The position numbers were made by a program, and so were the translations under genes. Below the pieces are notes generated by a model. It had not been told where the DNA came from and ran no database searches. It saw only the letters and a list, made by a program, of their open reading frames with translations. A DNA stretch of 64,000 nt, from NCBI GenBank assembly GCA_019925105.1, contig JAHGAU010000011.1:1302001-1366000 (forward strand), in the 5' to 3' direction. The DNA is from Niebla homalea. Its lineage: Eukaryota > Ascomycota > Lecanoromycetes > Lecanorales > Ramalinaceae. Below are positions 16,223 through 47,713 of this stretch, piece by piece; positions within the stretch are counted from its first letter, which is position 1; every line of letters begins with the position of its first letter.

Positions 16223-16230
16223 AAACAACC

Positions 16231-24279: not shown

Positions 24280-24352
24280 CCTTAAGGGGTTCCCCTAAAC
24301 TTTCAAGATCGTCTTGGGACGGTCTTATGACCGTCTTATATTCAAGACCGTC
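24280..24352 (+). repeat. Left terminal inverted repeat of the giant element
   Basis: Seventy-three bases beginning CCTTAAGGGG and containing TCAAGATCGTCTTGG and ATTCAAGACCGTC. The last 50 bases match the right end at about 46 positions; the outer 20 match less well. Confidence 0.82.
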
Positions 24353-24412
24353 TTAAGACCGTCTTAAGACGGTTTTTAATTTAAGATCGTCTTGGCTTTT
24401 GGGGGTTCTGAT
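24353..24412. repeat. Left subterminal palindromes
   Basis: Further AAGACCGTCTT / AAGACGGTTTT and AAGATCGTCTT units inside the left end. They mirror the outer repeat, so the end can fold back on itself. Confidence 0.7.
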
Positions 24413-24520
24413 TATTAAGCCCATTATTTAAGTTAATACCATTTAAGCAATAAAGTAATCTTTTGTCTGGATAAGTAATTCTCAGCATAAATACTTAAAA
24501 ATAAACTACCTACATTTACT

Positions 24521-24670
24521 ATTAAGACTGCATTATACTACTATAACCACTATAACCTATTAAGACTACGTTATACTACTAAGACTATACTACATTACCA
24601 AGATTACGCTACATTATTAAGACTGCGTTATACTATTAAGACTGCGCTACACTATTAAGACTACGCTATA
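24521..24670 (+). repeat. Minisatellite, about 18-19 bp unit
   Basis: Irregular repeats of ATTAAGACTGCGCTACACT and variants such as ATTAAGACTACGTTATACT. CA and TG steps are kept, unlike most of the window. It lies 170 bp inside the left end of the giant element. Confidence 0.75.
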
Positions 24671-24799
24671 TCCATTATTACCTACCCTATATCCTTAACT
24701 TTACTGTATTTACCATTAGGTATTTACTTATTACCTATACGGGATTTATTACCTATATAAAATCCGTTATAATTTAATAACCCCTTAACGATCGATCGG

Positions 24800-25590
24800 A
24801 TTCGGGCCAATATATATAATAAAGCCGCCTTTTAAACGGTATATAGATATTATAGAGCTATTTACGCTTTATCGGTTAAGGATTAATTGGGACGGCCGGA
24901 CGTTCTATGAGTATTACGGGGCCTTAATTGAAAGCCATATTTAAGTGTATTAAAGTAACTTCTTAAAAGGAGGTTAATAAATTATAAACGTTAATATTTA
25001 CCCAAATTAAGATTTAAAGTAGTGGTATTTTTGAGGATTTAAGGTAACGATATCCTTTCTATATTAAAGGAGGTAAACAGATAAAAAGGGTTTCCAAATA
25101 AAGTCAATGAATACCCTTAATAAGAGAAGTTATAAGTAAAATTAAAGAATAGGCTTCTTTATACCTACGTAAAAGAACCTTAATAAAGCTAGTCTCTAAA
25201 AAAATAAAAACGTAATACCATTTACTCGGATTAAGCGGAGTTAATTATGCCACTTTAAGATAAGCGGAACGTCTTAAATAATAAGGTTATAAAGTAAGTC
25301 CCTTCTATATCTTAAAGGACCCGGGTTTAAAAGGCATTAATATATAGCTCCTTCAGACTTTATACTTCCTTTCCCACGGGTAACTAACCGGCCAAAATAG
25401 CCCTTATATATATACTTCTTATATAATAATACCTTATAGCTCCAGATGTCTATTATAAACTTAAATAGATTAATTTCTAAGGGACATCTGGTATAAATAT
25501 CGTTATTTTTAAGGACCTTAATTTTATTTATATTTCGATAAGAAAAGGTTTAGTTATAGATTAATTTTTAATGATTATAATCTTTTTTAA
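24800..25590 (+). pseudogene. Decayed reading frame of unknown function (frame alpha)
   Basis: First gene-like stretch inside the giant element. In one frame (codons starting at multiples of 3, e.g. 24888) about 250 codons read with stops almost only TAA/TAG, as expected when Gln codons are hit by RIP; one TGA stands near 25037. Recognisable runs include INWDGRTFYEYYGALIESHI at 24882-24941 and APSDFILPFPRVTNRP at about 25347-25394, a composition far less AT-driven than neighbours. I see no known motif. The start is uncertain and the 3' end is blurred where the frame runs toward the minus-strand gene at 25650. Could be part of a replication or capsid-like protein or of a host-derived cargo gene; no assignment is justified. 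Confidence 0.45.
25442..25491. repeat. Short perfect inverted repeat
   Basis: CCAGATGTC (25442-25450) and GACATCTGG (25483-25491) separated by 32 bases; both arms keep CA/TG steps. It lies near the end of frame alpha and could be a hairpin. Confidence 0.6.
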
Positions 25591-25649
25591 CTCCTTTATA
25601 CTATAATTATAATCTTTTATTAAGGTTTATTATTTTAAATCCATATTTA

Positions 25650-26060
25650 TTACAACTGATTAAATATATTTTTATCGTCTGGATTAGTTAATTCAAAAAC
25701 GTAATCCTTATTTATATAAATTCCCTTAACGTCTATAGGATATTTTAATATTAAACCAGCTTTATTAACATAAGAAACCCACGGGCCATAAGAATCTCGA
25801 TTACCGTTCTTTAATATATTATTAAAATCGTCTGAATTAAATAAGACTACGGTTTTTAAGGCTTAATCTTTATTAATAATTATAACGTTTATTTAATCTA
25901 TTTTCTTAATTAACTTACGTTTTATAACTCCTTAAAGATAAATTACAATTATAGATATTTTAACGGAATTTTTCACAGATTTCCTTAATAAACTATAAAG
26001 CTTTAAAGGTAAAAAATTAAAGCTCCTTAGAAATAAGTTATAACTATAAATACTTTAACG
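25650..26060 (-). pseudogene. Lightly decayed minus-strand frame (frame beta)
   Basis: The last 70 codons (25862 to 25653, stop TAA at 25652-25650) are fully open on the minus strand and look like ordinary protein: NGNRDSYGPWVSYVNKAGLI followed by KYPIDVKGIYINKDY and ending NPDDKNIFNQL. Upstream the same frame continues with only a few TAA codons (at 25865-25863 and further right), each after or before residues compatible with Gln. Two imperfect 95-bp repeats near 25955 and 26050 share a ..FRQNIYN../..LRQSIYS.. pattern, but 95 is not a multiple of three, so a frameshift or intron lies between them. I recognise no family. It is one of the least damaged coding stretches in the window and lies back to back with frame alpha. 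Confidence 0.5.
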
Positions 26061-26289
26061 AAGCTCTTCAGAATAACGTTATAAAGGAATAAAAAATAAT
26101 TTAAAATATTATAGACTTAATTAATACTATAAATAAATCGATAATCCAGCTTATATTAAGCCTTAAAACCCAAATTTATAAGATATAAAGATTAAATATA
26201 TTTATTAATAATTATAACGCTAAAAAGTAATAGAATAATAAACGTATTCTTATAACTATAAAATATCTCCATCTTTTTATAAGTGGTTA

Positions 26290-26640
26290 TAGGCTTTGGA
26301 TAAAGCTTTATTATCCGTATAGCCTCGGATAAAAAGATAAAGGAGAAAGAGATAAAGAAGGAGATAAAAAAGTAATAAAAAAGGTAAAAATAAAAATAAA
26401 GTAAATAAAGGTGAAAGAGAAAATATAAGTATCATTTTTTGGTGTCGGCTTTATAGGCTACGGGTATTAAATTTAATATATTGAATTTTAATGGTGGCAC
26501 CAGTAACGGCCCTATTACGTCCGCATAAGCCCCTAGTACCTTTTACGATTAACAGTAAGATTACAAGGCTATTAAGCTATAATAACATAATATAATAACG
26601 TAGGATATATAGCTAGTAGAACGGTAATAACGTATCTATA
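26290..26640 (+). pseudogene. Charged, then Gly/Ser/Gln-rich decayed frame (N-terminal part of frame gamma)
   Basis: A Lys/Glu/Asp-rich stretch at 26330-26420 (DKGERDKEGDKKVIKK) is followed, after an apparent frame change near 26480, by NGGTSNGPITSAQAPSTF at 26491-26544 with CA steps retained. Downstream the same frame runs into the tandem repeats at 26640. It looks like one protein with a charged linker and a low-complexity C-terminus. There is no recognised domain. Confidence 0.4.
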
Positions 26641-27690
26641 ATTATACTGGCTCGAAATACTATAATAGATATTACGATAAATATCGTAATAGATATTATA
26701 ATAAATATCGCTTTAAGGATAGATCCCGGGCTGAATTTAAGGGGCCGCTCCGGGGGTAAAATGTTAAATTAAGGCTATTATTATAACGGTAATAATTAAT
26801 AATAAAAATAATATTTATAAATCTTATATAAATAATAATAATAATATTATTTATTAAATTTATAAAAACAATAATATTAAGGATAGTATTTATAACTTAT
26901 ACGATAAATCATACAATAAAATATTACGATAGATATTACGATAAATATTACGATAAATAGGTACCCGGGGGTGGATTCCGGGGGAGCCTCCGGGGGTAAA
27001 ATATTAAATCAGATTATTACGATAACAGTAATAATTAAATAACTATATATATGAATTTTATAAAGGCAATAACGGTAATAACGGTATAAAAGTACTGGCT
27101 CGAGAAATCATAATATATATTTTAATAAATATTACGATGATTACGATAAATATTACGATAAATATAGCTTAAGTAATAACTTTAAGGGTGACTTTTAGGG
27201 TGGATCCCGGGATATATTCAGGGAGGGTAAAATGTTAAATTAAGGCGTAGATTATTATTATAAAAGCAATAATTAACAGTAATAACGGTAATTATAAATA
27301 TTATAAAGGCAATAACGGCAATGATATTGTCTATCAATTTCATAAAAGCAATAAGGGTAAGGACGGTGTCTAGGTATAAATATTGCAACAGATATCGCGA
27401 TAAATATTGCGATAAATAAGCCCCCAGGTATGGGTTCGGGGGAGGCTCCGGGGCGGATCCCGGGTTAAATTCAGGGACGGTAAAATGTTAAATCAAGGCA
27501 TAGGCTATAATTATAATTAATAGCAATAACGGTATTTATAGATCTTATAAAGGTAATAATAATAATATTATTATTTATTAATTTTATAAAAATAATAAGG
27601 GTAAGGATAATATTTATAAATTTTACGATAAATATTACGATAAATATATGGATTCGGGGGGAGTTCCGGGGATGGCTTTAAAGGTAACTT
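26640..27690 (+). repeat. Coding tandem repeat, about 240-bp unit, four to five copies
   Basis: Anchor TAAAATRTTAAAT recurs at 26757, 26997, 27229 and 27481, giving periods of 240, 232 and 252 bp; a partial fifth unit ends near 27690. Each unit has a run of TATTACGATAAA units (Tyr-Tyr-Asp-Lys), a GC-rich block such as GGTGGATTCCGGGGGAGCCT (Gly-Gly-Phe-Arg-Gly-Ser), and a GGTAATAACGG block (Gly/Asn). In frame the unit reads YYDKYYDK then GGGFRGSLRG, an RGG-like low-complexity composition. The GC-rich block is conserved between units while the AT part varies. An RNA- or nucleic-acid-binding disordered tail is possible by composition only. Confidence 0.7.
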
Positions 27691-27699
27691 ATCTTAAAA

Positions 27700-28799
27700 T
27701 TAAGGTATGAATTCTTAAAGGTGCTCCGTTTATATCTTATGGGTACCTTATAAAAATTATACGTATTAACTATATTTTAAGTTAATATAATAGATTATTA
27801 TCTGAAGATATTAATTATTTATTAATTATATCTTTTTATAATATTATTATAAAGTTAACGGTAATCCTTCGGTCCTTATAATTAAGATAATACGCTTTTA
27901 TATATATATAAGGTACCTAAGGTACCTTTATATTTAAATATACTCCGTAAACTTCTTATTAAGTAATATTAATATACGACTATAATAGTAGTTTCGCTTT
28001 AAAAAGTAAAAAAACAAAAAGTTTAAAGCTTAATTATTAATATAATTATATTAATAATTAAGATATATTAAAAATCAATTATATAAATATTATTAATATT
28101 ATTCTTAATCGTATTAACAGCATAGCTAGGATCTATAAATAAAATTTAAATATTTAAATAAGCTTCGGATTAAAGGGTTTATAAGATTATAAAAGAGACG
28201 TAATTATGGTATTAATAAATATAAGAAAAAAAAGGATTGGTGAAAGCGTATGATCATTATCTGCCCTTAAAATAAGTAATTATTTTTAAGATTATATTAA
28301 TTAACGATTAAGCTCGTAAAATATTACAGGTATAATTAATATAATAAAGACTTACGAGATTAATATTATTATTATAATAGAATTACCTTAAAGGAACCAG
28401 GACGTCTTAAAATAAACAGACAGAAAGTATTACGTAATATAATATTAATAAAATATAAAGCATTTTCTAAAAAAAATTACCTAGAATGCCTACCGATTAA
28501 TTCTTATAATTATTACTTAAATACTGGTTAAGCAAGCTTAAAAATATACCTAAGTAAATCCTTATAAAGATACGTTTAACTTATAACTTCACGTATTTAT
28601 TTATTATTAATTAATATTTAATCTATATAGTATTATAAAAAAGAATTATATAAACTCTTCAGTTAAAGATTAATTAAAAAAATAATCAGGTAAAGAAAAA
28701 GACTCCTTTACTTTATATTAAAGTAATAACTTTATAAGGTATTATAAAAGCATAAATACTATCTTAATATTAACCTTTATATTATAACTTATAAGTGAA
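27700..28799. other. No assignable feature
   Basis: AT-rich, RIP-mutated sequence between the coding repeat and the minus-strand frame delta. A near-palindrome AAGGTACCTAAGGTACCTT stands at 27910-27928. Open stretches exist on both strands between 28350 and 28800 (for instance EPGRLKINRQKVLRN on the plus strand near 28400), but neither strand is clearly better than the other. Confidence 0.5.
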
Positions 28800-30640
28800 T
28801 CTTTTATATTATAATTAATAAATATTTATTATCTCGGTTATAATTAATTATAATAAATATATCGTATATATTATATTAAATATATTAAATATATTAAATA
28901 TAAATTTAATCTTTAAGGTAATTAACGCCCCTATATTCCCTATACCGCTTATACTTTATATAACGTTATTTAAATATTAAGTATTTCGTTTAAATATTAA
29001 GTTAAAAGAGGCTTTAATAAACGTAATATTAATAATAATATAATAATCCTATTCTTAATAATATTAAAATCTACCGGTTTAAACCCTATATTAAGCTATA
29101 TATACTCCGTATCGTTATCTAGAAAATATACCTTAATTTTTAATAAAAGCTTCTTCTTATAAATTAATATCTTTATAAAATTAATTAATAAAAAATAATT
29201 ATATTTTTACGCTATAAATATTTACGGAATCTAAATATTAAAATATTCGTTATCTTTCGTATTATTATAAAGTACTTAATTATCCTTTTTGAAATCCTTA
29301 TTTAATTTAATTTTAACCGTTAAAATACAATATACTTCTATAAAGATATTAATCTTAAACTTATATTAATTACGAACTCTTTCTTACGTTAAAAGAAACA
29401 GAATAATTTATCGTTTTTTTAATATATTTAATTAATAGAAATAACTTTAAACGTAAAGTTAAATACGGCCTCGAATATAGAGATAAAAAAATACTTAAAA
29501 AATAACATGGTTAAGTCTTTAAAGCTACCGTATTTTTCAATAATATTATTCGTATTATTCTTAAGGATTTTTTTAATATATAGTTAAAAGCGTTATTAAT
29601 ACCGAGATATAGGATATTATTTAATATATACTAATATTTTTAACTTTATATTTATTTTCTAGTTACTTATATTGGATATTATTTATTATTTTATTAATCT
29701 AATAACCGGGGATACCAATAAATATCCTTTTCTGAATATTAAAGTTAAAAGCTATTTATATTTAAGATAATAATATCTTAAATAAAATATATGATTTTAA
29801 TTAAATAAATCTTTTAGTTATAAACGTTTATTTTCGTTTAAATTATCCTTCTTAAATACCTTTATTAACCGCCGTATTTTTATTTTTTTTGTTTTTTATA
29901 CGCGGGTTTATCCTTATTTTAAATCTTAGCGAAAATATTATTATCATATTAAAGTAATTCTAAATTATTTTTTTAATATTAGGCGAACCCAAAGGTTAAT
30001 AAACTTACGTATCGTTTTTAATACTTAAATTTAAATTAAACTCTTTAATTGGCTATTTAAGTAACCGCTGGAGTTAATTACTGGGTTAATTATTAAATTA
30101 ACTATTAGATTAACTGCTGGGTTAATTATTAACCTACCTATTCCGTTGGACTTATAGTTATTGATAAGTCCTTATACGTAACGTTTTACGTTTTAAGCCG
30201 TTTAATCGGATGAAATATCTTTACTAAATTATATAATAATAGCTCGTCCGGGGAAGTATCCTCCTTTTATATTTGAAAATTGGGCCGTTTACTTAACGGC
30301 TTTAACTTCTTAGGTTATTTACGATTTAACGGGGACTTTTATGGAGGAAGCGGAGGCTTAAATATTAGGCGGGGTATTCCTTTAAGTTATAAATATAATA
30401 TCTCCTCCGTTATTTCCGTAATTATATTTTTTTATTAAGCTTAATTTCCATTAACTTTATTAAATAATTTAAAAGTTAATATAAACGCTATATAAAGGAA
30501 TTTATTATATTAATTTATAAAAATGATTTTTATTTTTAATTTAATAAAAACTGGGTTAAAAAGGCTATCGTAATTACTTACGATATTAAAACTTATTTCT
30601 TAAAGTCTTTCTTTAATACTATTAAAATAAAATATTATAA
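28800..30640 (-). pseudogene. Decayed frame with Gln-Gln-Leu repeat (frame delta)
   Basis: On the minus strand one frame (low coordinate of each codon divisible by 3) can be followed for about 600 codons with TAA/TAG but no TGA that I could find. From the N-terminal side: a Phe/Ile-rich part; a proline and lysine stretch reading FKPPLPP at about 30360-30340; KEDTSPDELLLYNLVKIFHP near 30265-30206; then a repeat that reads QQLTQQLIQQLIQQLT when TAA is taken as Gln (30135-30065); then KIQNKDKPAYKKQKKQKYGG near 29900; later YSEKDIYWYPRLLDQ near 29730. It diverges from the giant plus-strand frame at 31994, leaving about 1.3 kb between them. Unknown family; the downstream end is approximate. Confidence 0.45.
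30060..30137 (-). repeat. Short coding repeat (QQL[TI])n
   Basis: Units of about 15-18 bp based on AATTAACCCAGCAGTTAATC on the minus strand. Several CAG/TAA alternations in the same position show directly that TAA here replaces a Gln codon. Confidence 0.65.
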
Positions 30641-31993
30641 AATAAAAGAAATAAAAGAAATATATAAATAAATAAAGAAATACGTATACTATATACGTTA
30701 ATTATAGTAAAATAGATAATTCAAAGAAAATAGAGGCGGTAAGCTATTAAATATAAGTAATAATTATTAACGTAGACTCCCATAAAGCTAAAGATACAAG
30801 GATTTATATATTGTAAATCGTAAATTTAACGATAATAAATTCGATTAATTAATTAAAACTATTACGATAAGATATACTTATTATATTATCCAATTAAGCT
30901 TATACGATAATAAAATAATCTTTACTTTTATATACGTTTATATTTAGAGTTATAGAATATATTAATAAACGTAAATATAAGTTATTATTAATATATAGAA
31001 TTTAAGACTTTTTTAAAGAATCTTAATATTAATCGTAAATATTTAACCTTACTTAATTAATGGCGATATTATTATTATTCCAAAAATATTAAAAGTAATA
31101 TATCGCTTACTTTATACTAGAACCGATTATTAAGTAATAATAAGTAATTAAGACTTCTGCGATTAATTTTTTATTCTTAACCTTAAGCTTTACGATTTAA
31201 CTCCGTAAAAGTCCCTTAAATACGTAATTATAGTATTTAGGATTAAGTAAATAATATATAATAAGTATTTCTATTTATTATCCTTATAAAAATGGATTTA
31301 AAATATTATATAAGCTTAAAACTTAATTCCTAAGTTCCGTAAATATTACGATTCTATTAATACCTTCTTTTATAATAACCTTCCTCTTTATCCAAGTAAA
31401 TAGCTTAAATACCTTTAAATTTACGAGATCTTTATATAATAAAGCGTATATAATTAAAGTATTTACTTTTTAGCGACTTATTATTTCCTTAAAACGCTGC
31501 TTAATTCCCTTATTTTTATGAATATATTTATCCCAATATTATATTTAATTATTAAGTTTTTATAGAGCGTTTTCCTCTTATTTTTAAATAATATTTTTAA
31601 TTATTTATAATATCGCGGAATCGTTACTTTAAATTTCTTATCTTATATTTCTTGTGGATTTATTTTATTATAAAATATTAATATAATAATCTTAATTTCT
31701 ATAGTTTTAAAATTAGAATTAATTATTTTATAAATATTATTAATAACTTTTTATTAACTCTTTTTAAGCTTTATCTTATTTTTATTTATTTATTCGCTCC
31801 TTTTTATACCGCTTATATAAGTAACTTTTATACTTAATATTATCTCCTTATCTTTATTTTTCTTATATCTATACTTACTTCCTGGATCCCGTGGTTACCT
31901 ATTAGTCTCCCAAGGTCCCTTAAAGTAGCCTTTTTAAACGTTTTAATTATATAATTTAAACGTTTTAATTATATAACTTAATTTACTATAAAA
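30641..31993. other. Intergenic between two divergent decayed frames
   Basis: Mostly RIP-mutated AT-rich DNA without a frame I can support. A RIP-poor block (GGATCCCGTGGTTACC and following, 31884-31923) and two tandem 22-bp copies of TTTAAACGTTTTAATTATATAA-type sequence (about 31933-31978) lie just upstream of the start codon at 31994, a plausible promoter position. Confidence 0.5.
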
Positions 31994-34900
31994 ATGTCCC
32001 AGCAGAAAGTTCCCGACCTTATAACTTAGAGATTTATTAGTTAAATTTAAAAAGTATTAAAATAAACGTTTAAGGTTTTTAACGTTATAAAATAACGTAA
32101 TTTTTCGTTTTAAATTAATAATAAAAAGTTAAGACCGATTAAGCTTAAATAAATATTTTAATTAAAACCGATTTAACCCGGGTAAATATCCTAAATAAGG
32201 TTAAATAATTAAGCGGTACGCCCTATATTACGCGATTTTCAAATAGAAAAAGATAACGTAGAATATAAGCCTTTTTTTCCTGCCGATTAAAATATATTAA
32301 ATAACAATAATTATTTAAAAATATTACGATTAACTTTAACGGAAACGATAATTAAATAACAATAAAAAGTAAATTAATAATTTAAATCGTATAAATTAAA
32401 GTATTTTTAAATTAAGTAAATATAAAATACAATTAAAATTATAAATAATATCTTTAAATATATTAAAAATGAGCTTAACGTAAAGGTTAATAATATAATT
32501 ATTAAAGAAAATAATAAGGAAAATAATTTATTTATTAATAAAATAGAAAAAGCGAACCCGAAAAAAAAAAAAAACCCGTAAATTAATAAATTTAACGATA
32601 ACTTTAAAGTAAATAATATGGTAGAATAGCCTTTAATTTCTGCCACGCTTAATATTAACTTATTTATACCTTTATTAACATAACGTTTATTTATACTTAA
32701 TAAGTTAATTAAGATCCCTTATATTTAAGCTAAATTAATAACGTCGCCTTTTTATATAGTATTTACCCTTTAATATTAAATAACGGGTTTAAGTTACGAT
32801 TATTATATTAATCTTTTAAAGGTTTTTAATATATTAAAAAATTTAAAGTAATTATAAAAATTATTACGTATTATTTTTACCATTAAGAAATATATTTATA
32901 AATAATTACTTATTATTAGCCTTTATTAAGTATAAATACCCGTTATAATTTTAAAGTAATTAATTAAAAAATTAAAATAAAATAATAAAAAGGAAATTAA
33001 AGAAAGCATAAAAAAACTAATTTTCTTTAATTTTATTGATTTATTTAAGACAACGTTTTCTTTATTATTTTACTATATTAAAATCTATATTAATATAAAT
33101 TACTTTATAAATAAATTATCGGAGATTTATTAATTTATAATATAATTATCTTTTATTAAAACGTATTTTAATAATTTTACTTATTTCTTAAATAAAAATA
33201 TAATCTTTTTATTTAATATTATACGTTATTATTATTAACGTTAATACTATATTTATTTTATAAAAAATTTAATTAATTATTATTAAGGAAAGGTATTTAT
33301 AATTAAATAAAATTTCTATAATAATATAGCCTTTAATAATCGGGTTAAATACGCGATTCGCCCGTTATTATTCTTAAATAACCTTTTTATAGAAAGGTTT
33401 ACTTCTGAATTCCTATTATTATACGGTTTAATTACGACGGAAGTTTTCTTATTAATATATAAAGAATATTATATTATATTTAACGATATTATTAAGATCG
33501 AAATTAATATATACTATAATTATTAATTTTAGAATATACGGTCCTTAAGTATTACTTATTATTAAGAATTTATAATTAAGTATACCTTTAATTCTTAATT
33601 TAAAACCTTTAATCTATTACTTTTTTATCCGTTAATTTATAGTAAATTAAAGTTAAAAGAATATACTCATTTATATCTATTAGGATTTCGCGTTCTAAGG
33701 TCTTTATATATACCGGTATTAATTTTTATTAATAAATTTAATTTATATTATAATATATATTACGCTTTATTAAGTATTTATATAATTATCGTAGGATTAT
33801 TATAAAGAAAACGGAAGAGAAAAGTAAATATCCTATTATTAATACTGGGATTATACGGAACTATATTTATTATTATTATTAAAATCCTTTAACCATCTCT
33901 AATATAATTGGATTATAATATAACCATTAATATTAAAAAAGTATTAACTTAAGTAAGTATTTTTATTTTTATTTATATTAATAATATAAAATAATAAATA
34001 AAGAACTTTAAGTTTAAATTAACGATAATAATATACGGATATATAAAATGCCTAATTAAAAAGACTAAATAATATAATTTTACCTTTAATATTTATTGTT
34101 TTAATTAATTATATTATAACGTAATAATAATAAGGTAAAAAGCCTTAAATTTACATAATAAAATTAAGGACCTTATTAATCTGAATATACTATTTAATTA
34201 GACCACTTTAATTAATATTTCCTTATCGTTCGATATTATCCGGTTAAAATTAAATAACGTAATATACTTTAAATTCATTAATATTATAAAATAAACACAA
34301 TAAGTACTCCTTAAAACGATACTTACGTTAATAGCGAAAAACCTATATAACGTTTAACTATATACCTTCCCTTTTCCGTTTAAGTAAAAAAGATTATAAT
34401 TAATCTATTATTTTAATTCTTACCGTATATAAAAGTATATAAGACTTTCCATTATTTATTTATTAATTTTACGTATATAGCTTAGATCAAATTATATTTA
34501 ACTACTTTATTTAAGGGTTATTTAATTTATTATAATAAATAATAAAAACCTCCAGAATAAAGACTATATTATTATAGCTTTTATAATAATAATAAGGAAT
34601 AACTTTATTATTATATTAATCTTAATATCCCGTAAATAATATAATAATTTATAAAATAATCTATTAAAGTATCGTATCGCATTTTAAAAGCTTTATAAGT
34701 ACGTTATATTAATATTAATAAATAGCTCTAAAAAGGGTATTAAGTTAATCTTTAATAAAAATATTTTATTTATTACCATAAATAATAAAAATAATAATAT
34801 ATTTATAAACAGCAATTTATAACAGATTAATTGGGAAAGCTTTAAGGTATTTAAGGAGACCTTTTTAGTCGGAGGTAAGTAATTTAAAAAGGTTATTAAT

Positions 34901-37740
34901 TATTAAAATACTTATAATTGACCGAATATATATATTAACCTTTATTATACGGAGGTTATGGTAGAATTCATAATACTTAATAACTATATTATATTTTCAG
35001 GTAAAAATAAATATAAATAAAACTATTATTAATATGGAGCTGTTCTATTTAATTCTAATCTTAAAAGTTTTAAGCGTAACGTTTAATATATTAATTATTA
35101 AAATATAATAAGTATCCTATTATATAAAGAACGACTTAATTAATCTCTCCGTTTTCTTTTAATAGGCATTTAAAGTAATTATAAACCGGAGTTCTCCATA
35201 ATAATAAAAGATATTTATATTATATACCCGACCTTATTCGATAATTTATTATTATATTCTGAAAAATCCGATTAAATAAATATTATAAATAAAATTAAAA
35301 TATTAATTATTTTAAATTTATTTTATTAATAAACTATAAGTTTAAACCGTTTAAACTTAATATATATACTCCGTATTTTTATATTTTTATATATCCCGGC
35401 CGTTTTGGATTTTTAAATCCTTTTTATTATATAATTAAATAAATATATATAATTAATTATAAATAATAGAATATAATATTAACGGCGTAAAAGAAAATTT
35501 AATAATATTAAAAAGTAGCCTTTATTAACCCGTAAATATAATATATTATTATAATAACTTAAAGTTTTAAAGTATTTCCACTTTTTAAAATCCTTATTTT
35601 ATTATTTAAGTTAATTAATAATTTACTAATATATCTATAAATACTTAAATCGTTTAAGACTTAAATCGTTTTTAAATAAAAGATTTTATATACGTCCGGA
35701 ATTAATAATATATTCGACTTAAAAAGGTTTTTCTTTATAAACTTTCCGTAAGAGAAATTTATTTATTTACTTATATAAGGCTTTTAAACTATATACCGAC
35801 TATAAATACCTTAATAAATAAGGTTTTAAATACGTTTTTTATGCTTTTATTAAAAAATAAGATAATAGTTAGGTTATCCGTTATTCTATTTTTAAATATT
35901 ATATTATTTATATATTTCTAAATTATTAATAAAGTAAAACTTTATAGTTAATAAAAGGTAAGGAAGATTTATTAATATATTAAAAATATAATATTTAATT
36001 TATATAATACGGTTTACGATATTTAATAAATACTTTAATAGCAGTTACGGTATATATATTTTAATAAAATTAAACTTTAAAAAAAAGGTTAAAAGCTATA
36101 AGTATTATAATTATACAATTAAAAACTATAATTATAAAAAATGGGTTATTTATAAATTAAAAGAAATTCTGAGGGCATTTAAATAAGGTCAGAAGGTAAA
36201 CTATATATAAATAATAAACTTAAGTAATTTATACTTGGATTTTTAAGGTATTAAAATAAGTATTTTTAATTAAGCTTAACGTTAAATAAATAAAAGCATA
36301 AATAAAAAGTTAAGGCAGTAATTATTATATTAAATCTTAAAGTTTTTATAGGATAAACATTAAAGTATATTTCTTTTTAATACTTCAACCTATAGATAAA
36401 TACGTATAATTATAAATATAAGAATAAATAAATTAAAAACCTTTATAAAGAACTTAATTAAAAGTATAAAGAATATAATTACTATAAAGGTATATCGTTT
36501 ATTTATACGTAAGGACTTTACGTATTACGGCTATATAAACGCAAACCGATTTCTATTAATTATATTATACAACTATATTATTATATTATCCATACCATTT
36601 TATATTTATCTTATATAATTTTTAGACTTTCCCTATTTAATCCTTTATATACTTATAATCTTTTAGGTTTTATCGGAGTATTTATTAAAGTCTTAAGTTA
36701 AGGATAACGGGCAAAGGTATAAACTAGAAATCCAGGATTTTACTTTAAAAAATCTATAGACGCTAATTATTATATATTAAGTAATTTATATTTATATTTA
36801 TTAATAATAAAAGGCCTTATTAATAGCTATTAGAAGTTAATATTATATAAACTTATATATAAGGGGAATAAAAGGGATATTAAGAATCCTAAAATCCCCT
36901 TTAATTATAACTAATAATTTAATATATTTACCCTTTTTTATTCCGATAATTATTAAGGTAATTAAATTAATAACTATATAAAGAATTTTAAATTTAAAAT
37001 ATAAAACTTAAATCTAGGGATCTATATAAATTATAAAATATTTACCCGATTATCTTTAAGATTTTTAACCTTTAAGGATTTCGACCTTCAAGATTATTTA
37101 TTTTTATAAGTAACTCCTTTCCTGGGTCTCTAAAATTAAGGTCTTCTCTTCCCGTTATTTAAGAATTATTAACCATAAAATAAACAAACTTATAAGCTTA
37201 TTATTAATTATAATTACAGTATATTTACCTTATTTAGCCGCTTATATTATTCCTTTAAACTTATAAATATCTTAATCCCAAAATATTTAATTACAATATT
37301 TAATTATTCATACCCTTTTTTCTTCTAATAAAAATTTTCTTTTTAATAATTATTATTCTTGCCGTTATAAAATCTATATATTAATTTCCGGATTTATTAC
37401 CTAGAAAAAAATCGTAATACAGGTATTAATCTCTTTAAAATAATAATTATTTACGATAAGTATTTAAATATATTAAGTAATATTATATTTACTTCCCTTT
37501 TACCTTTTTATATTTAAGTGGTAATAGTTTAGTTCGTTTATTCATAATAATAGTATTATTAATATACTTATTTATTTGCCCTTCTTTTTATATTTTTCTT
37601 TATTATTATTTTATACTTTATAATTGTTTTTAAATATTTTAAGATTCCCTTAACCTCCCCCATTCTCCTTACTGCCTCTTTTTTCCTTATAATTTACGGG
37701 TAAATTTATTATTATTATATTTATTAATTAAATACCGTTT
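31994..37740 (+). pseudogene. Giant decayed reading frame, about 1,900 codons (frame epsilon)
   Basis: Starts at ATG 31994 with eight undamaged codons (MSQQKVPD). One frame can then be followed to about 36070 with TAA/TAG stops and a single TGA (34919-34921); I checked the phase at about ten points. At an A8 run (36079-36086) the sensible frame shifts by one and continues to roughly 37740. Landmarks: RDFQIEKDNVEYKPFFPAD near 32228; a basic run ANPKKKKNP near 32555; RPLLFLNNLFIERFTSEFLL near 33359; INWESFKVFKETFLVGGK near 34829; NYKKWVIYKLKEILRAFK near 36130; KDNGQRYKLEIQDFTLK near 36701; LSWVSKIKVFSSRYLRIINH near 37117. No Walker A, YxDD, DDE or zinc pattern could be confirmed. The length suits a helicase, polymerase or NLR-type protein, but I recognise none. 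Confidence 0.45.
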
Positions 37741-37849: not shown

Positions 37850-38760
37850 TTGTAATTAACCTTTATAGATTTTCATTTTAATAAAGCTTACCCCTTTAAA
37901 AAAGATTAGAACTTTAGTTTATACCGTTTATTTTTCCTGGTTTTTATAGTAAAAAAAATATCTTATTTAACGGAACCGGATATAGCTTTAAAAAATATTA
38001 TAACGAATATATTAAGTATTAAAATTAACTTTTACAGATTTTTATTTTAATAAAAACTTAATTTTTATTTCTTTCTATAAAATCCACTAAAACTTTAAAT
38101 TATACCGTTCGTTTTTCTTATTTTTTATAGTAAAATAAATATCTTATTTTATAAAATTAAATATAGCTTTAAAAGGTATTATAACGATAATAGTAAGTAT
38201 AAAAATTAACTTTTATAGATTATTATTCTAGTAAGAAGGATTTCTTTACTTATTACGATAAAATCTTTTATACGTATTATATGATTTTTCATTTTTTAAT
38301 ATTAAAAAATTCGTTTAATTTTACTTTATTTATTTTATACCTTAAAAGTATTATAACGGGTAAGATAATAAATTGCGGATAATAAATAGTTAATAAAAAG
38401 TAATAATATTTATAATTTTAACGGCATTTTATTACGATAAATCTCCTATACGTACTATATAATTTTTCTTTTTTTAACGTTAAAAAATTCGTCTTTTTTT
38501 ACTCTTTTAATTTAATAACTTAAAAGTATTACGACGAATAAAATAGCGGATAATAAATAGTTAAGAAAGAACAATAATATTTATTTTAACGGTATTTTAT
38601 TATAAAAAAATCTTTTACGATAAAATCTCCTATAATAAAATCTCCTATATATACCGTATGATTTTTTATTTTTTAATATTTAAAAATTCTTTTTCTTTTA
38701 CTTTATTGATTTAATTCTTTAAAAGTATTACGACGAATAATATAATTATTAACGGTCGGA
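37850..38760. repeat. Tandem array of five diverged units, about 180 bp each
   Basis: Corresponding landmarks fall at about 37919, 38100, 38279, 38457 and 38655, i.e. steps of 181, 179, 178 and 198. Each unit has a T-rich part, an AAAAATTCGT or AAATAAATATCTT part, a TAAAAGTATTACGACGAATA part, and ends near TAATAATATTTAT. The first two units are more like each other than like the last three. The last unit carries an extra copy of ATAAAATCTCCTATA. It separates the giant frame from frame zeta. Confidence 0.75.
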
Positions 38761-40640: not shown

Positions 40641-40849
40641 ATAAATATAGGACGCAATATAGTATAGGGTATACGGTGTAGTACGCGGTATAGTACGGTG
40701 CAGGGTGCACGGTGCAGGGTACGTAATACAGGGTCCCCAAGGCAGGCCCCCAGAGTAGCCCCCAAAGCAGCCCTGAAAGAAGCCTTAAAAGCAGCCCCTT
40801 AAGTAGCCCCCGGAACAGCCCCCCAAGCAGCCCCCGGAGTAGCCCCCAA
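40641..40849 (+). repeat. GC-rich minisatellites that escaped RIP, left part
   Basis: First a TATAGTA/GGTGCAGGGT microsatellite-like stretch (40655-40735), then many copies of a 14-15-bp unit of the type AGCCCC(C)AAGCAGCCCC with CAG and CA steps intact. The array is cut at 40854 by the Copia at 40855-47440 and resumes at 47441. Confidence 0.85.
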
Positions 40850-40854
40850 GTAGC
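40850..40854. repeat. 5-bp target site duplication GTAGC, left copy
   Basis: GTAGC directly before the 5' LTR; repeated at 47441-47445. The duplicated sequence belongs to the CAGCCCC minisatellite. Confidence 0.88.
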
Positions 40855-41006
40855 TGTTAAAAGTACTTACATTGGTTACCCGGCACTCGGGTAGATTAAA
40901 TATAATCCGAAGCTAGACTTAATTGGGGTAGCCGGGATTCAGGAGTACTTAATTATACTTCTGTATATAGAGAATAATTAAGTAACTTATATTTTATATT
41001 TTAAGA
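40855..41006 (+). repeat. 5' LTR of Copia-2
   Basis: 152 bp, starting TGTTAAAAGTACTTACATTG and ending TTTTAAGA. It contains TACCCGGCACTCGGGTAG, a short palindrome-like box seen in all three LTRs of this family in the window. Confidence 0.88.
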
Positions 41007-41021
41007 GGTTATAAGCCCGGC
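41007..41021 (+). promoter_or_regulatory. Putative primer binding site of Copia-2
   Basis: GGTTATAAGCCCGGC follows the 5' LTR directly. The identical sequence follows the 5' LTR of the other Copia type (48124-48138), although the LTRs themselves differ, as expected for a conserved primer site. The priming tRNA was not identified. Confidence 0.6.
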
Positions 41022-43810
41022 CTCGCGATGGCGATACCCTATAAAGATACCTTTTCCTTATTCAATTTTATAACTATAATATAGAGATCTTACCGTATAA
41101 AATACACTTAAAAATAGAAGTATTCTACCCAAGAATATTATTAAATTACGATTTTTAAGTTATAAAGTTAATTAATAACTTAATAATCTGAAATTCTATA
41201 AGGATAAAATACCCTAACCTTATTATTACCGGGGTATACGTATTTATTAATTAAAAAGTATAAATACTTATTTCTTAATTTTATAGGTTAATTATATACC
41301 GGTATTTATACGCCGGAAACCGGCTATATATAAAGGTTTCGGCTTTATAATATAAAGCGTTAAACGGAGCCTTAATAAAGGTTTTAATTAAGAAATTTCA
41401 ACCTTAATTAAACTCTTTAAAATTTAAACCCTTAAATTTTATAATTATAATAAAAAATTTTTACCCAATTTAAACTCTTTTTATAATTTAAAGGATTTTT
41501 AACCTTATTCCGCCGTTAAGATTACTTAATTAAGACTTTTTATAAGGATTACGGAACGTTATAAAGTTAAAAAACTTTAAACTTTCATTTTTTATAATGA
41601 AAAATCTTATCTTTAAGACGAACTCTTATTTTTAAGACGGTAACTTTAATTATATAATAAAAATATAACTCGGTTTTACCCTTAAAATTACTTAATTAAG
41701 ATTATTTTTAAGGATTAAATTTAAAAAGAAAAAGTTTATTTACTTAAATTAAGATTTTACGTTTTTAAAAAAGGGAGACTAAAAATTAATTACTAAATCC
41801 TTTATATTTTAATTGGCCCGGAAGGTTACTTAATTTAATTAACGCCCGGAAGATTAAGGATAAAATAATTATAAATAAAAATTATAGCCTCTAAAGTAAA
41901 AAGCGATAATTAATTATAAAAATTAACTTTCTATATTATATTAAGCATAAAGAAAACGAGCAATTTTAAAGGGGTATAAAGATAACCTAAATATCCGTAA
42001 AGTTTTAATCTACTATTAATTAAAATAAATTAAACTTTATTTAAAATTCAGGCTTTATTATTAAAATCTTTAAGTATATTATTACTCCGCTTTATTAATA
42101 CGGAAATCTTTTTATTACTTTTTACCGTTAGGTTAAGAATAAATTTTTCCGCTTTTACTTAAAAGACCTTTAAAAAGAAAACTGAAAAACTACTTAGGAA
42201 GTAATTAAAGACGTAGATAAAAAGTATTTACCCCCGTTTATGCCGAAGTTTTACGATAGTTTCGGCTTAAAGGCATTTAAAGAACCTTTAATATTACTGC
42301 TTAATAAATTAATCTTTAAGCTCCGTTTAAGGGCAAAAAACTAAATCCCGTTATTTAATACGGAATATCCCCTGCCTTTAAACGATTTATTAATTAAGTA
42401 TTAATTAAAATTTAAATCGTTAAAATTAAAAAACTTATCGGATTTCTTATTTAATCTTAGTTTTAAATTTAAATTTAATTAAGTAATTAATATTTCTTTA
42501 CGCGTAAATATTAATTTAAAAACCTTAAGTTCCTATTTTCTCGTTGAAAATAACTTTTAAAATTAAAAACTCCGTTTCTAAGAGTTTCTTTCTTAATATA
42601 ATTCCGTTATTAATTAAATAACGTTAATAAATATTATAATAACGGTAAGTTAAAGATTAATTAATCCTTAATAACCTTTATAAGCTTATAACTATTAAGG
42701 ATAAACTTAAGGTTATTATAATTATTAAAACTCATTATAAAGATAATATATATTACCTTATAAATAAATTGAATACGATTAAAGAAATCTAGACTATTTT
42801 TATTATCCATTTTAAACCTTAAGGTTTAAACTTATATATTAAATTAACCCGGGAGTTTAAAATAATAATAAAAGGTTTAAATAAAACGGTTAATTAATTT
42901 ATCCGTAAATTCCGTAAGTATATTGCCGAAATATTAATTATCGATAAGTTATATAAAGTCTTTAACTTAATAATTTTTTAATTTTTCTTATTCGGTTTTA
43001 ATAATAGTTAATAATATTTTTATATTAACTTAATATAAAACCAGATTATCCTAAATTAAAATTCTTTTAATTTTAATAAAGTTATATTAAGAATTATTAA
43101 TAAAGAACTATAAATTAATATAACCTATATTAATGTTACTTTATAATCTTATTTAATAGCTCCGAAGGTTAATAATAAGCGGTTTTTATTAAATATAATA
43201 ATTAAAAACATAATTATTATACCATAAAAAACCGTAATAATAAATACCCGGAAAGTAATTATTAAATTTTTTACTTTAAGAAAAGGATTAAGACGTTATA
43301 CTAAAGGTTAAAGAAGCTAAAGATTAAGGAAGCTATTATTATTATACCGGTAAATCTATTAATTTTAAAGGAGGTTTATAATATAATAAACGTAAATATT
43401 AAGCCTGGATATATAATAATATCCGTTAACCTAATTAATTTATAAAAGCTAATAATCCTAAATAGTAATTATAATAAATACTTTTTTTATTAAAGAGAAT
43501 TCTTCGGTAATAATTTTTAATCTTATTAAATAATATCCTTAAGGTTAAGTTTAACGTAAATTAATTATACCAGCGGTATTAATACCGCCCGGATAACTTA
43601 TAATATTAACGGAAGAAAAATAATAATTAAGTTTTTAAACTTTATTTATTCCCCCGATAATAAAGTAAACCTCTTTTTAAAGATTTAATTCTTGGATAAT
43701 AAAATTAAAATAATAACTTCCCGGGTTAAACGGATAATAATTAAAGGACCCGGTAAATTTATATACTCCCGGTAAAAATAACTTTTTATATTAAATCTTT
43801 AAATATTATT
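41022..43810 (+). pseudogene. Copia-2 leader and gag/protease region, degenerate
   Basis: The place where gag and the aspartic protease should lie. I could not follow a frame or confirm the CCHC knuckle or the protease DSG motif after RIP. Assignment rests on position between the primer site and integrase. Confidence 0.5.
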
Positions 43811-46730
43811 TTAATTAATAATAATAATATTTAACGTATTAAACGATATATTAACTTAATATATAAAAATAAGGTATTTTAACCTTTAATCTATTATTAA
43901 GTTAATTACGGTATCGATAGGGATATTCCTTAAGCGTAAACGAAAAGAATAAAAAAAGCCCTTAAAGGAGGTAACGTATATATATTATATTTTTAATAAG
44001 ATAATTTCTTAACCTTATAAGGGATATCTTAAGTTAAAGATTATTCCGTTAAAGTTTATTTACTCGGACCTTATAAGGTTTATTAAGCTAGTAAGCTTTA
44101 ATAAAATTAAATATTTTATTATTTTCCGGGATAACTTTATTTATATATTAAAAGTCTACTTAATAATTTATAAGTCGGATATAGCCCGTAAATTCAAGTA
44201 ATTTTAAGTTAAATATAAAATTATCAAACGGAAAATCAGGCGTTTACGGATAAATAACGGGGATAAATATATATTAAAAGACTTTTAAGATTACCTTAAA
44301 AAATATAGTATTATTTATAAACCAACGGTATAAAGTAGCCCCGAATAAAACCCCGTAAGTAAAAGATTTAATTAAGAAATTAAAAAGCGGACCCGTATAA
44401 TAATCTATAATATAAGCTTATTTAAAAATTTATAATTAAAAATTATTATAATTATTAATTATTTTATTATAAAAGAACTTACGTTTAATTTAAAAAAGAA
44501 AATTATTTTATATTAAGCATAATATAATTAAGAACCGGATTTATTATATTTATGAGTTTTTGGGTTATTAATATAAATTAAAATTATAAAGTATTAAACC
44601 TCCTTAAATAAAAGGGCCGATTTATTTATTTTATTAAGTTATAATAATAAGATTATTAAGATATACCGGGTCTTTAACCTTTAAATACGAACTTTTAATA
44701 AAAAGGTAAAACGATTCTATAACGTTTATATTAAAGAACGGAAGATTATTCCGTTAAATAACTTTAATAAAAATACTTTAATAAAAAAGATTTAACGTTT
44801 AAAAAAGATATATAACCTTAATAAGTTTTTACTTTAAAGGAGAATTACGAGAATTAAATTTATAATAATGTTTTTATTAATAATATTTTAAATAATATAC
44901 CTATAAGTAATATAATCCCGGTTAAAGAATAAGGAAATTACCCTTAAACTTAATATAATTAAGATAAATAATAATTTAATAGATTATAAGAAAAAATTGA
45001 AATTATTTTTTAAAGTAATTTTAAGCTTAAAATCCTTAAGTACTTAAAACTCCGGGATATATCCTTAAACCCATTATTTATTTTTATTAATATAATTATC
45101 TTAAATAAAGAAAAGGATATTTATTATTTAACGTTAATATTATTTAAGAATAAGCCGGAATTATTTAAGTTAAAAAATTATTAAGAAGTTATAAAAAATA
45201 TTTATTATAAAATAAATTAATAATTAACGGAAAAAGATAAATACGGCTTTTATATTAAAAATAATACCTAAATATTTATTCTTAAGTATATAATACCTCC
45301 GAATATAATTATTCTAAAAAAACAATAAGTTTATACTCTTAAGAGAAACGTTAAAGGTTTAATTATTTAATATAAGGCCCGCTGGGTAATCCGTGGTTAT
45401 AAATAACGGGAAAATATCGATTATAATAAAACTTTCGCTTTTATAATTAAACTTATAAGTTATAAGGTACTTTTTATATTAACGGCGGTTAACGGTTAAA
45501 ACTTAAAGTAAATAAACGTAAAAACGGCCTTTCTTTATAGTTTAATTAAAGAAGAAGTCTATATAAAATAACTTTATAGTTAAAAGAAGGGCACCGATAT
45601 ATATTATAAACTTAATAAAACCCTTTACGGACTAAAGTAATCCTTTTAATTATAATATTATTACTTCTTTACCTTTATAAAGAAATAAAGGTTTAAGCTA
45701 ATATTTACGGATTATTATATATTTATATACCCTAAAAATAAAATAATTATAGTTCTTTACGTAAACGATATCCTGATTATTAATTTATTTAAGGAAAATA
45801 TTATAACCCTAAAAAAAACACTTAATAATTAATTCTATATATTTAATTTAAGGTTAATCTATTATTACTTAAATATAATTATTATAAAAGACTATTAAAA
45901 TAAAATACTTTAACTTAATTAAGAAACCTATATAGAAAGAATCGTTAAAGATTATAAGTAATAAGATATTACCCTTATATATATCTTTATAAAGTTAAAA
46001 TATAAGCCGGAGCTTATATTTAAAAATTATAAAGTTAACTTAATTTTCCAGAAGAAATATTAATTAACCGTAAGTTTTTTAATATATATTATACTTAAAA
46101 CTTACTTAAATATTATTTACTTTATTTTAATAATTAACCGATATACTTTAAATCCTATTAAATATTATTAAAAGTTAATAAGAAGAATTTTACGTTACCT
46201 CCGTATTACCGTTACTTTCTAATTAATATACCGGGGTAAATTAAAAGCTTTTAATAATTATATTAACTCTAACTTTATTATAAATTTAACCCGGAGGTTT
46301 ATTATAGGTTACGTATTTAATATAGGAAATACCGCGATTAATTAATAATTTAAGCGTTAAGTTACGGTTACCCTCTTTATTTATATTTATTTATAAAGCG
46401 GAATATATAAAATAAATATAAATAATTAAAAAAAATTTATAATTTAAATAACTTTTAAGTAAAATTAAACTGTATTAAGCCGGGAACCTTCCCGCCGTTA
46501 TTATTTATAGAGATAATTAAAACGTTATAGCTTTTATTAAGAACCTTATCTTCTATACCCGGATTAAGTATATAAGTATTTAATAATATTAACTTCAGGA
46601 AGTTATAAGAGATAACCGGGTAAATTTAAAATATATCCCGACGTATAAATAAGTCGTTAACGGCTTAATAAAACCTTTATTATATTAGCTTTTAAGGGGT
46701 TCCGTAAAATACTTAGCCTTAAAATACCCC
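43811..46730 (+). pseudogene. Copia-2 pol: integrase, reverse transcriptase, RNase H
   Basis: Integrase sequence occupies about 43811-44470. RT follows: KARWVIRGYKQ-like sequence at about 45378, then a degenerate Tyr-Gly-Leu-Lys-Gln-Ser box near 45631, then VLYVNDILII around the former YVDD box (45758-45769), where the first Asp codon now reads Asn. RNase H lies at about 46230-46730, with the characteristic end of Copia RNase H (IP-T..Q..DGLTK..) visible near 46640-46680 as YIPT/RLNKT-like remnants. Stops are TAA/TAG throughout. There is no sign of a separate gene. Confidence 0.8.
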
Positions 46731-47280
46731 GGAACGTTTTTATACCGACTGAAGCTTCATTAATAATATTAATAGCCTTATAACTTTATCTTTAAGCCAC
46801 TTAAGGTAAGCTTTAAACCATTTATAAAAAGAGCTCTTAATTACTTATAAGGAGGCCATTATTAGTTTTAAGGAACCTAAGAATACGTTTTAATATAAAT
46901 TTAATATATAAGGTAAGAAGGTTAAAAAAATATTTTAAAAGGAGGGTAAATCGTAAAAAACGATATTTACCCCGGAGTATACCCGGATGAAATTATATAC
47001 CCCGGGGGGTTATTAAAAAATAATTTAAGATATAAAGGAGCTTACTATCGTTACGCCGGCTTTATAACTTAAGGAAATAAATAATATATATTTAGAGTAA
47101 TAAGTATAATTTTCTAAGGTATTTTATAGTAAAAGATTACCGCTATAAAGGAGCTTTAATAGCTTATAGAAAATATTACTTAAATGGGGTATATATTATA
47201 TAAAGATTAAAGCTAAAAAGCAATAATAGAATATAATATTATAAATAAATAATTATATAGGTAATATATATTAAAGCTTA

Positions 47281-47288
47281 AAGGGGAA
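47281..47288 (+). promoter_or_regulatory. Polypurine tract of Copia-2
   Basis: AAGGGGAA directly before the 3' LTR, the expected plus-strand primer. Confidence 0.7.
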
Positions 47289-47440
47289 TATTAAAAGTAC
47301 TTATATTAATTACCCGGTACTCGGGTAGATTAAATATAATCCGAAGCTAGACCTAATTGGGGTAGCCGGGATTCAGGAGTACTTAGTCGCACTTCTGTAC
47401 ATAGAGAATAATCAAGTAACTTACACCTCACATTTCAAGA
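47289..47440 (+). repeat. 3' LTR of Copia-2
   Basis: 152 bp, TATTAAAAGTACTTATATTA to ACATTTCAAGA. It differs from the 5' LTR almost only by C/T and G/A changes. Confidence 0.88.
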
Positions 47441-47520
47441 GTAGCCCCCAAGCAGCCCCTAGTAAGCCCCCTATTAGCCCCCTTAATTAATCCCTACGGG
47501 TCCCGGTACAGGGGCATTTA
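47441..47520 (+). repeat. GC-rich minisatellite, right part, with GTAGC duplication
   Basis: GTAGC (47441-47445) is the right target duplication of Copia-2. CCCCAAGCAGCCCC-type units continue to about 47490 and end in less regular GC-rich DNA. CA and CAG steps are intact. Confidence 0.82.
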
Positions 47521-47640
47521 CCCTTAAATTGCAAGATCGTCTTAAATTAAAGACGGTCTTAAGACGGTCTTAAGACGGTCTTTGAATTAAGACGGTCTTT
47601 TTAATAAGACGGTCTTAGGCTGAAGACTACATTAAGGGGT
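47521..47640. repeat. Right subterminal palindromes of the giant element
   Basis: Five or more AAGACGGTCTT-type units, including AAGACGGTCTTAAGACGGTC, and an outward copy of CAAGATCGTCTTAAATT that mirrors the one at the left side (24378-24398). Confidence 0.75.
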
Positions 47641-47713
47641 GACGGTCTTGAATGTAAGACCGTCTTAAGACGGTCACAAGACGATCTTGGAATTTGAGTG
47701 AAGACCGGTAAGG
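47641..47713 (-). repeat. Right terminal inverted repeat of the giant element
   Basis: Reverse complement begins CCTTACCGGTC and contains TCCAAGATCGTCTTG and ATTCAAGACCGTC in the same spacing as the left end; 59 of 73 positions match. Followed by the duplicated TA and Copia sequence. Confidence 0.82.

What the first reader, a model, noticed from the sequence alone, without database searches (positions are those of the whole stretch)
24280..47713. A 23.4-kb inverted-repeat element with a TA duplication and unrecognised cargo
The two Copia pieces at 22680-24279 and 47714-47985 are halves of one copy: they end and resume at the same homologous position, overlapping by TA. What separates them begins and ends with a 73-bp inverted repeat (59/73, ungapped). 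Without its nested Copia the element is about 16.8 kb and carries six or more decayed frames, none of which I can name. TA duplications belong to Tc1/mariner-like chemistry, but the size and cargo do not fit that group. Starships use short direct repeats and lack such TIRs; Polintons duplicate 5-6 bp. This may be an undescribed large fungal DNA transposon.
Basis: partly seen in the sequence, partly recalled or inferred. Interest (0 to 1): 0.92.

Follow-up and report, generated by a model that had tools for sequence, protein, structure and literature searches.

The report
Large RIP-killed fungal DNA transposon family
A 16-17 kb jumping gene that inserts at TA sites is present in several copies in this fungus, all of those found damaged by mutation, and it appears to have carried its own very large transposase of a kind that the protein-family and structure libraries searched here do not recognise.

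Summary
24280-47713 is one copy of a multicopy mobile element. Six loci have both ends. All six begin CCTTA, end TAAGG and lie between TA and TA. Paralogous empty sites were found for four of the six. Copies align colinearly at 82-85% identity; 4740 of 5318 two-state columns are transitions, as RIP (repeat-induced point mutation) gives.

One gene could be shown: a plus-strand frame of up to 1,490 codons (window 31123-35783), of which about 1,100 codons show third-position transversions against diverged relatives. Five of six full copies carry it; C28 has lost most of it. A MITE family with a similar end motif and TA flanks also exists. I read this as an autonomous TA-inserting cut-and-paste transposon with a transposase most likely of EnSpm/CMC type (C-x2-C inferred), but no Pfam or PDB profile matched, so the superfamily is open.

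By anatomy it resembles ToxTA (14.3 kb, 74-bp TIRs, TA duplication), whose classification its authors call uncertain. 'Unrecognised cargo' beyond this gene is not shown.

The parts
24280..47713 (+). whole element copy (23,434 bp with a nested retrotransposon; about 16.8 kb without it)
   Evidence: paired ends and colinear interior in five other copies
24278..24279 (.). TA target-site duplication, left
47714..47715 (.). TA target-site duplication, right
24280..24352 (+). left terminal inverted repeat
   Evidence: 59/73 against the right end
47641..47713 (-). right terminal inverted repeat
24302..24393 (.). left subterminal repeats of AAGAC(C/G)GTCTT type
   Evidence: motif AAGAC[CG]GTCT 4 times in the left 260 bp, 0 in the 22,834-bp middle
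24517..24670 (.). 19-bp tandem repeat TACTATTAAGACTACGCTA near the left end
47454..47713 (.). right subterminal repeats of the same motif
   Evidence: 12 occurrences in the right 260 bp
31123..35783 (+). RIP-inactivated frame of up to about 1,490 codons, read as the transposase gene; in this copy continuous at 31514-35386, with other frames before and after; its first 340 codons or so lack codon periodicity
   Evidence: 85 stops in the 1291 codons of 31514-35386: 79 TAA, 5 TAG, 1 TGA
33362..35401 (+). best-conserved part (putative catalytic core: FI(D/N), TG(D/N), C-x2-C)
37910..38613 (.). tandem repeats of about 180 bp near the right side
   Evidence: repeated hits in the other copies
40735..40854 (.). 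12-bp C-rich tandem repeat at the right side, just before the nested element
40857..47441 (+). nested LTR (Copia) retrotransposon with 151-bp LTRs; not part of the element
   Evidence: LTRs. The 30-member scan set that includes this stretch gave RVT_2 in 2 members; it matches the interrupted Copia
22680..24279 (+). left piece of the interrupted host Copia
47716..47985 (+). right piece of the interrupted host Copia
44453..46301 (+). uninterrupted Copia copy (within the nested element) that shows the empty site

Best explanation
This is a dead copy of an autonomous cut-and-paste DNA transposon, intact length about 16.6 kb. An element-encoded DDE-type transposase (a single frame of up to 1,490 codons) recognised CCTTA..TAAGG ends and the clustered AAGAC(C/G)GTCTT subterminal repeats, cut the element out and pasted it at TA, duplicating TA. 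A separate MITE family with a similar end motif and TA flanks was probably moved by a transposase of the same kind. RIP then damaged every copy that was examined. Shown: the ends, TA duplication, empty sites, copy number, RIP, and one gene once under protein-level selection. Inferred: that the gene is the transposase, its DDE and CMC-like nature, the role of the subterminal repeats, and mobilisation of the MITEs.
For: Six copies with both ends; termini and TA..TA in 6 of 6, and TA beside three intact single ends too; paralogous empty sites for 4 of 6 insertions; colinear interior and 4740 of 5318 two-state columns transitions. Gene: transversions among three family groups are 3-periodic (chi2 59.2, 75.8 and 64.7 in 600-bp windows at 7501-8100, 8701-9300 and 9001-9600 of copy C21), and the plus-strand frame is favoured there; one continuous 1,490-codon frame in copy C11b. 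It is present in five of six full copies and, diverged, elsewhere (40 matching pieces). Motifs: the aspartate of TG(D/N)I is D in 8 of 13 rows and that of FI(D/N)xF in two; C-x2-C is inferred because Cys appears at each position in some rows of this family and Tyr in nearly all others, the direction RIP gives. Subterminal motif: 0-6 left, 3-12 right, 0 in the middle of all six copies. MITE family.
Against: No convincing Pfam match of the gene, although the same kind of scan found RVT_2 at 6.4e-29 in RIP-damaged Copia. No PDB match. AlphaFold2 failed (mean pLDDT 30.4). The first third of the frame (C21 6.3-7.3 kb) and the window 8101-8700 show no periodicity. The Cys residues are seen only in this family, not in the relatives. 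The catalytic glutamate and the H(3-4)H motif of the CMC clade were not identified. Termini are CC..GG, not the CA..TG of most of that clade. Copy C28 lacks most of the gene, so not every copy was autonomous. Two of six copies have no clean empty site in the DNA held.
Confidence: 0.75

Rival explanations
1. A non-autonomous Tc1/mariner-type element: the ends are served in trans by an ordinary Tc1/mariner transposase and the large gene is a passenger. This is the kind of reading the authors of PMC12506042 propose for ToxTA.
For: TA duplication is the Tc1/mariner hallmark; MITEs with TA flanks exist here.
Against: The large gene is in five of six full copies (C28 has lost 5.5-10.7 kb) and in families diverged to about 68% DNA identity, as expected of a transposase rather than of cargo. 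The frame is some four times the usual length of a Tc1/mariner transposase (that length is recalled). No Pfam hit of any kind in six frames of copy C21, positions 1-15888, though RIP weakens that test.
Confidence: 0.15
2. The element belongs to an undescribed transposase superfamily, not to CMC/EnSpm; otherwise it works as in the best explanation.
For: No convincing Pfam and no PDB match; CC..GG ends; H(3-4)H not seen.
Against: RIP has removed nearly all Met, Trp, Cys, His and Gln, so a failed match is weak evidence; C-x2-C after the second Asp and a TA duplication both occur in published CMC-type elements.
Confidence: 0.3
3. A chance rearrangement or assembly artefact bracketed by palindromic repeats or MITEs.
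For: Short elements with similar palindromic repeats exist.
Against: Six colinear copies with identical termini, TA flanks, and empty sites for four of them.
Confidence: 0.01

Closest known systems
ToxTA (formerly ToxhAT), Bipolaris/Pyrenophora/Parastagonospora (PMC12506042: abstract, section 7 and passages; PMC6737239: passages)
   Same: Large (14.3 kb), long TIRs (74 bp), TA duplication shown by an empty site, ascomycete, RIP-damaged TIRs in two of its hosts.
   Different: ToxTA is reported as a single copy per isolate in B. sorokiniana, with eight annotated genes including an effector, and is proposed to be non-autonomous Tc1/Mariner. Here the family is multicopy, with one demonstrable large gene in diverged relatives and a MITE family. 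No sequence comparison was made.
ESTA (EnSpm-like with TA TSDs), CMCT clade (PMC12730594: passages and figure legends)
   Same: TA duplication; the C(2)C motif is compatible.
   Different: The passages describe three families with a TET/JBP gene from rust-group fungi, and mention others without it. No TET gene, complete DDE triad or H(3-4)H was shown here; termini and sequences could not be compared.
CNEST, CMC supergroup, Cryptococcus neoformans (PMC12810828: passages)
   Same: TA duplication, TIRs, encodes its own transposase.
   Different: About 7.2 kb, 33-bp TIRs beginning CACGG; a basidiomycete element with a CMC-type transposase shown by alignment.
Large plant CACTA such as Tgmt* (PMC2613891: abstract and passages)
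   Same: 20.5 kb, subterminal motif arrays, one large gene.
   Different: 13-bp CACTA TIRs and 3-bp duplication.

Membership tests
TIR (cut-and-paste) DNA transposon | terminal inverted repeats at both ends of several copies | tested here: met
   CCTTA..TAAGG 6 of 6; long TIR 52-59/73 ungapped in 4 copies, 32/73 (no better than the best control) in 2 with indels
TIR (cut-and-paste) DNA transposon | fixed-length target-site duplication with empty sites | tested here: met
   TA in 6 of 6; empty sites for 4 of 6
CMC/EnSpm-type (CMCT, incl. ESTA, Plavaka; CNEST) | 2-5 bp target-site duplication | tested here: met
   2 bp TA; range from PMC12730594 passages
CMC/EnSpm-type (CMCT, incl. ESTA, Plavaka; CNEST) | C(2)C and H(3-4)H between second D and last E | tested here: inconclusive
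   C-x2-C inferred at alignment positions 229/232, Cys in 1 of 12 and 2 of 12 rows; H(3-4)H and E not identified
CMC/EnSpm-type (CMCT, incl. ESTA, Plavaka; CNEST) | 5'-CA..TG-3' termini in most members | tested here: not met
   CC..GG
CMC/EnSpm-type (CMCT, incl. ESTA, Plavaka; CNEST) | transposase profile match | tested here: inconclusive
   PF18759 Plavaka 0 matches in the genome at E 10; its control rang in 1 of 14 genomes, below the cut-off. Pfam scans without a convincing match. Power reduced by RIP
Tc1/mariner | TA duplication | tested here: met
Tc1/mariner | short (about 350 aa) DDE/D transposase with HTH (criterion recalled) | tested here: not met
   the only demonstrated frame is up to 1,490 codons; no Pfam hit
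KDZ (Zisupton etc.) | 8-bp duplication (Zisupton) or 4-8 bp (KDZ2/3) | tested here: not met
   2-bp duplication
KDZ (Zisupton etc.) | KDZ domain | tested here: inconclusive
   PF18758 no match, but its control rang in 0 of 14 genomes
Starship | direct repeats at the ends and a tyrosine-recombinase captain (PMC12506042) | tested here: not met
   inverted repeats and 2-bp TA duplication; no Pfam hit in copy C21 positions 1-15888, with reduced power
Same family as ToxTA | sequence similarity of TIRs or transposase | not tested
   no ToxTA sequence was fetched

The most novel reading that the evidence does not exclude
This family represents an unrecognised group of giant, TA-inserting fungal transposons with long TIRs and their own transposase of about 1,500 residues. 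ToxTA-like elements, whose moving enzyme is unknown, are passengers or relatives of this group rather than of Tc1/mariner.
Probability: 0.2. Interest if true: 0.85.

Novelty: new variant of a known kind. Interest (0 to 1): 0.6.

Why it matters
Large TA-flanked elements in ascomycetes can end up filed as Tc1/mariner on the duplication alone, as ToxTA was, and for ToxTA the moving enzyme is stated to be unknown. A multicopy family with its own very large transposase-like gene, diverged sister families and MITEs gives a concrete candidate enzyme and end motif to look for. It also shows a way to find the coding frame of a heavily RIP-damaged element without repairing it: transversion periodicity against diverged relatives.

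Tried and rejected
Six-frame Pfam scan of copy C21 (positions 1-15888; the last 0.7 kb was not scanned) with stops as X: 0 families at E 0.1 in 30 members; positive control on 30 members from window 12001-24279 and 40700-47500: RVT_2 in 2 of 30, best E 6.4e-29. Conserved-stop scan within the family: uninformative, because CpA and TpG are nearly gone. Pfam scans of transposase rows: 8 rows, none at E 1; 16 rows, three families in one row each, E 0.01, 0.012 and 0.13 (AATF-Che1, DUF223, PDE4_UCR), taken as chance; two further proteins, none at E 10. PDB profiles: none. AlphaFold2: mean pLDDT 30.4, not used. KDZ and Plavaka families in the genome: none, with controls that give little comfort. Viral contigs with the unmutated 99-aa relic: 5 pattern matches, no relative. 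The same relic (75 aa) in the genome: 10 matches, only itself free of stops. Rfam at gathering scores: 0 in the window. Within-family transversion phase: 1 of 24 windows stands out weakly (701-1400, chi2 6.9) and the gene itself is not significant by that test, so it has no power. Periodicity at 10.8-12.8 kb: none. Apparent hits of transposase DNA at contig ends: the one end examined, C2:1-900, is TTTATTTACCC-type satellite and does not match with the low-complexity filter on. The TIR-like sequence next to the C25 relative looked like a short element end, but is a separate MITE.

Considered and rejected: Starship, Polinton, KDZ, chance rearrangement (see tables).

Full report
CHECK. The window is C11:1302001-1366000 of a 50.6-Mb assembly of 52 contigs. 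The first 201 bases of the element match seven further places over at least 163 query positions at 83-90%, and the last 204 bases match eight further places over at least 90 positions at 85-97%; the tool says such counts are lower bounds. Six loci have both ends: this one, C11:397072-420225, C4:862758-890325, C21:764113-780732, C7:751651-772153 and C28:10295-39030, of 16.6 to 28.7 kb. Other ends are single (left: C11:526389, C44:191318, and C7:702374, which lacks the first 38 bases; right: C11:120215, C1:1160286, C5:1324032). All six full copies begin CCTTA, end TAAGG and are flanked by TA on each side; TA also lies beside the three intact single ends that were printed (C11:526389, C44:191318, C11:120215). 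TA makes up 19% of dinucleotides in the window. The shortest copy, C21, is used as reference. The others align to it colinearly, interrupted by extra stretches taken as nested insertions; C28 lacks about 5.5-10.7 kb.

EMPTY SITES. With one TA removed, the joined flanks align without a break at the junction to other copies of the repeat that was hit (which printed matches reaching at least 60 bases to each side). This copy: the Copia nested at 45633-46302 (83%) and four weaker places. C11b: seven places, all with TA at the junction, three of them with a small compensating gap beside it. C4: seven places, TA in three and AA in four. C7: one place. For C28 the three matches are to the family's own left region and are not a clean empty site; for C21 none was found. 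Only held sequence was searched, so the two failures are not evidence against.

STATE OF THE COPIES. Pairwise identity among the six is 81.7-85.3%, and of 5318 two-state columns 4740 are A/G or C/T. CpA and TpG are at 0.19-0.27 of expectation in the six copies: RIP. Transversions per compared pair are 0.006-0.014 between 3.2 and 12.8 kb and 0.02-0.08 outside, so the core of the family was homogeneous when it was silenced and the outer parts vary more (inference).

THE GENE. A 2.5-kb interior piece finds long diverged relatives at 68-69% DNA identity at C44 (two places), C39, C9 and C25; four of the five were fetched. Transversions between the family and these relatives are 3-periodic from about 7.4 to 10.7 kb of C21, with chi2 19.5 to 75.8 in most 600-bp windows, but 0.0 at 8101-8700, where the frame of C21 changes, and 7.4-8.6 at 9601-10200 and 10501-11100. 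A likelihood comparison with stop counts favours the plus strand. In C21 the frame shifts, but in C11b it is a single frame of 1,490 codons with 100 stops. Its first part (6.3-7.3 kb) has few stops but no periodicity (chi2 1.3-5.5), so about 1,100 codons are supported by selection and the rest only by the open frame and by protein-level similarity to the C25 relative (43% over about 240 residues). In this window 31514-35386 is continuous, with flanking parts at 31123-31953 and 35302-35783 in other frames. Of 1291 codons there 79 are TAA, 5 TAG and 1 TGA, with 3 Met, 4 Trp, 2 Cys, 2 His and 7 Gln, the residues RIP removes. A 680-residue read of C21 finds 40 matching pieces in the genome, including relatives at 37-55%. 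One 125-residue frame at C23:120962-121243 has no stops and lies in DNA of normal GC; it matches the core at 39% and reads SRPSDAAHSEF...FPFPPGWGRLQSIHHLGSYRMQE. Searched back, it finds nine RIP-damaged places and itself. That it is a fragment of a related transposase is inference.

MOTIFS. In the 16-row alignment the aspartate of TG(D/N)I is D in 8 of 13 rows. Position 229 is Cys in 1, Tyr in 10 and Ile in 1 of 12 rows; position 232 is Cys in 2, Tyr in 9 and Ile in 1. Under one-way G-to-A change this implies ancestral C-x2-C, but the Cys rows are all from this family. An earlier FI(D/N)xF is D in two rows. I recall similar strings from unannotated fungal transposases of EnSpm/Plavaka type; that is a lead, not a test. 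The last E and H(3-4)H were not identified. Pfam, PDB and AlphaFold2 gave nothing usable; the shared protein database was switched off.

ENDS AND SATELLITES. The motif AAGAC[CG]GTCT occurs 0-6 times in the left 260 bp, 3-12 times in the right 260 bp and never in the middle of all six copies. This resembles the subterminal arrays of CACTA elements (PMC2613891, passages). A MITE family of about 260-330 bp has ends CCTTGGAGG..CCTGTAAGG and the same motif. The query (C25) has seven other matches at 73-85% over at least 277 query positions, and a ninth place, at C15, matches in two pieces. TA flanks were verified for the two held copies, C25 and C15; beyond the outer CCTT/AAGG and the repeats, the two ends of the C25 MITE agree at only 27 of 60 positions. 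The link to the large element therefore rests on the end motif, the repeats and TA, not on shared interior.

LITERATURE. ToxTA (PMC12506042, abstract, section 7 and passages; PMC6737239, passages) is the nearest in anatomy: 14.3 kb, 74-bp TIRs, TA duplication; its authors propose non-autonomous Tc1/Mariner and acknowledge uncertainty. ESTA (PMC12730594, passages and figure legends) and CNEST (PMC12810828, passages) show that fungal EnSpm/CMC-type elements duplicate TA. Seven searches showed me no paper on this family among the rows listed; the library lacks most subscription journals, so this is weak evidence of absence.

VERDICT. A real, multicopy, RIP-killed transposon family with TA insertion and one very large gene that is most likely its transposase. 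The superfamily is undecided between a large CMC/EnSpm-like variant and something undescribed. Cargo beyond this gene is not shown.

Noticed in passing
C25:668080-668409 (L029:1080-1409), C15:1114431-1114689 (L040) and seven more places listed: A MITE family of about 260-330 bp with CCTTGG..GTAAGG ends, AAGACGGTCTT repeats and TA flanks (flanks checked in two).
   Followed up: partly
L037 (C23:118001-125000), about 2956-3255 minus strand: An unmutated, normal-GC fragment similar to the transposase-like core, 125 aa open: a relic that escaped RIP.
   Followed up: partly
L041 (C2:1-900): This contig end is a 14.8% GC pyrimidine-rich satellite based on TTTATTTACCC.
   Followed up: partly
window 1-20000 and 60300-64000: 86 inverted repeat pairs of 60 nt or more in the window, the longest 685 nt, mostly between these two parts; not classified here.
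   Followed up: no
C28:10295 and 39030 flanks (L021, L024): The C28 copy's joined flanks match the family's own left region, as if it had inserted into or beside another fragment of the family.
   Followed up: no
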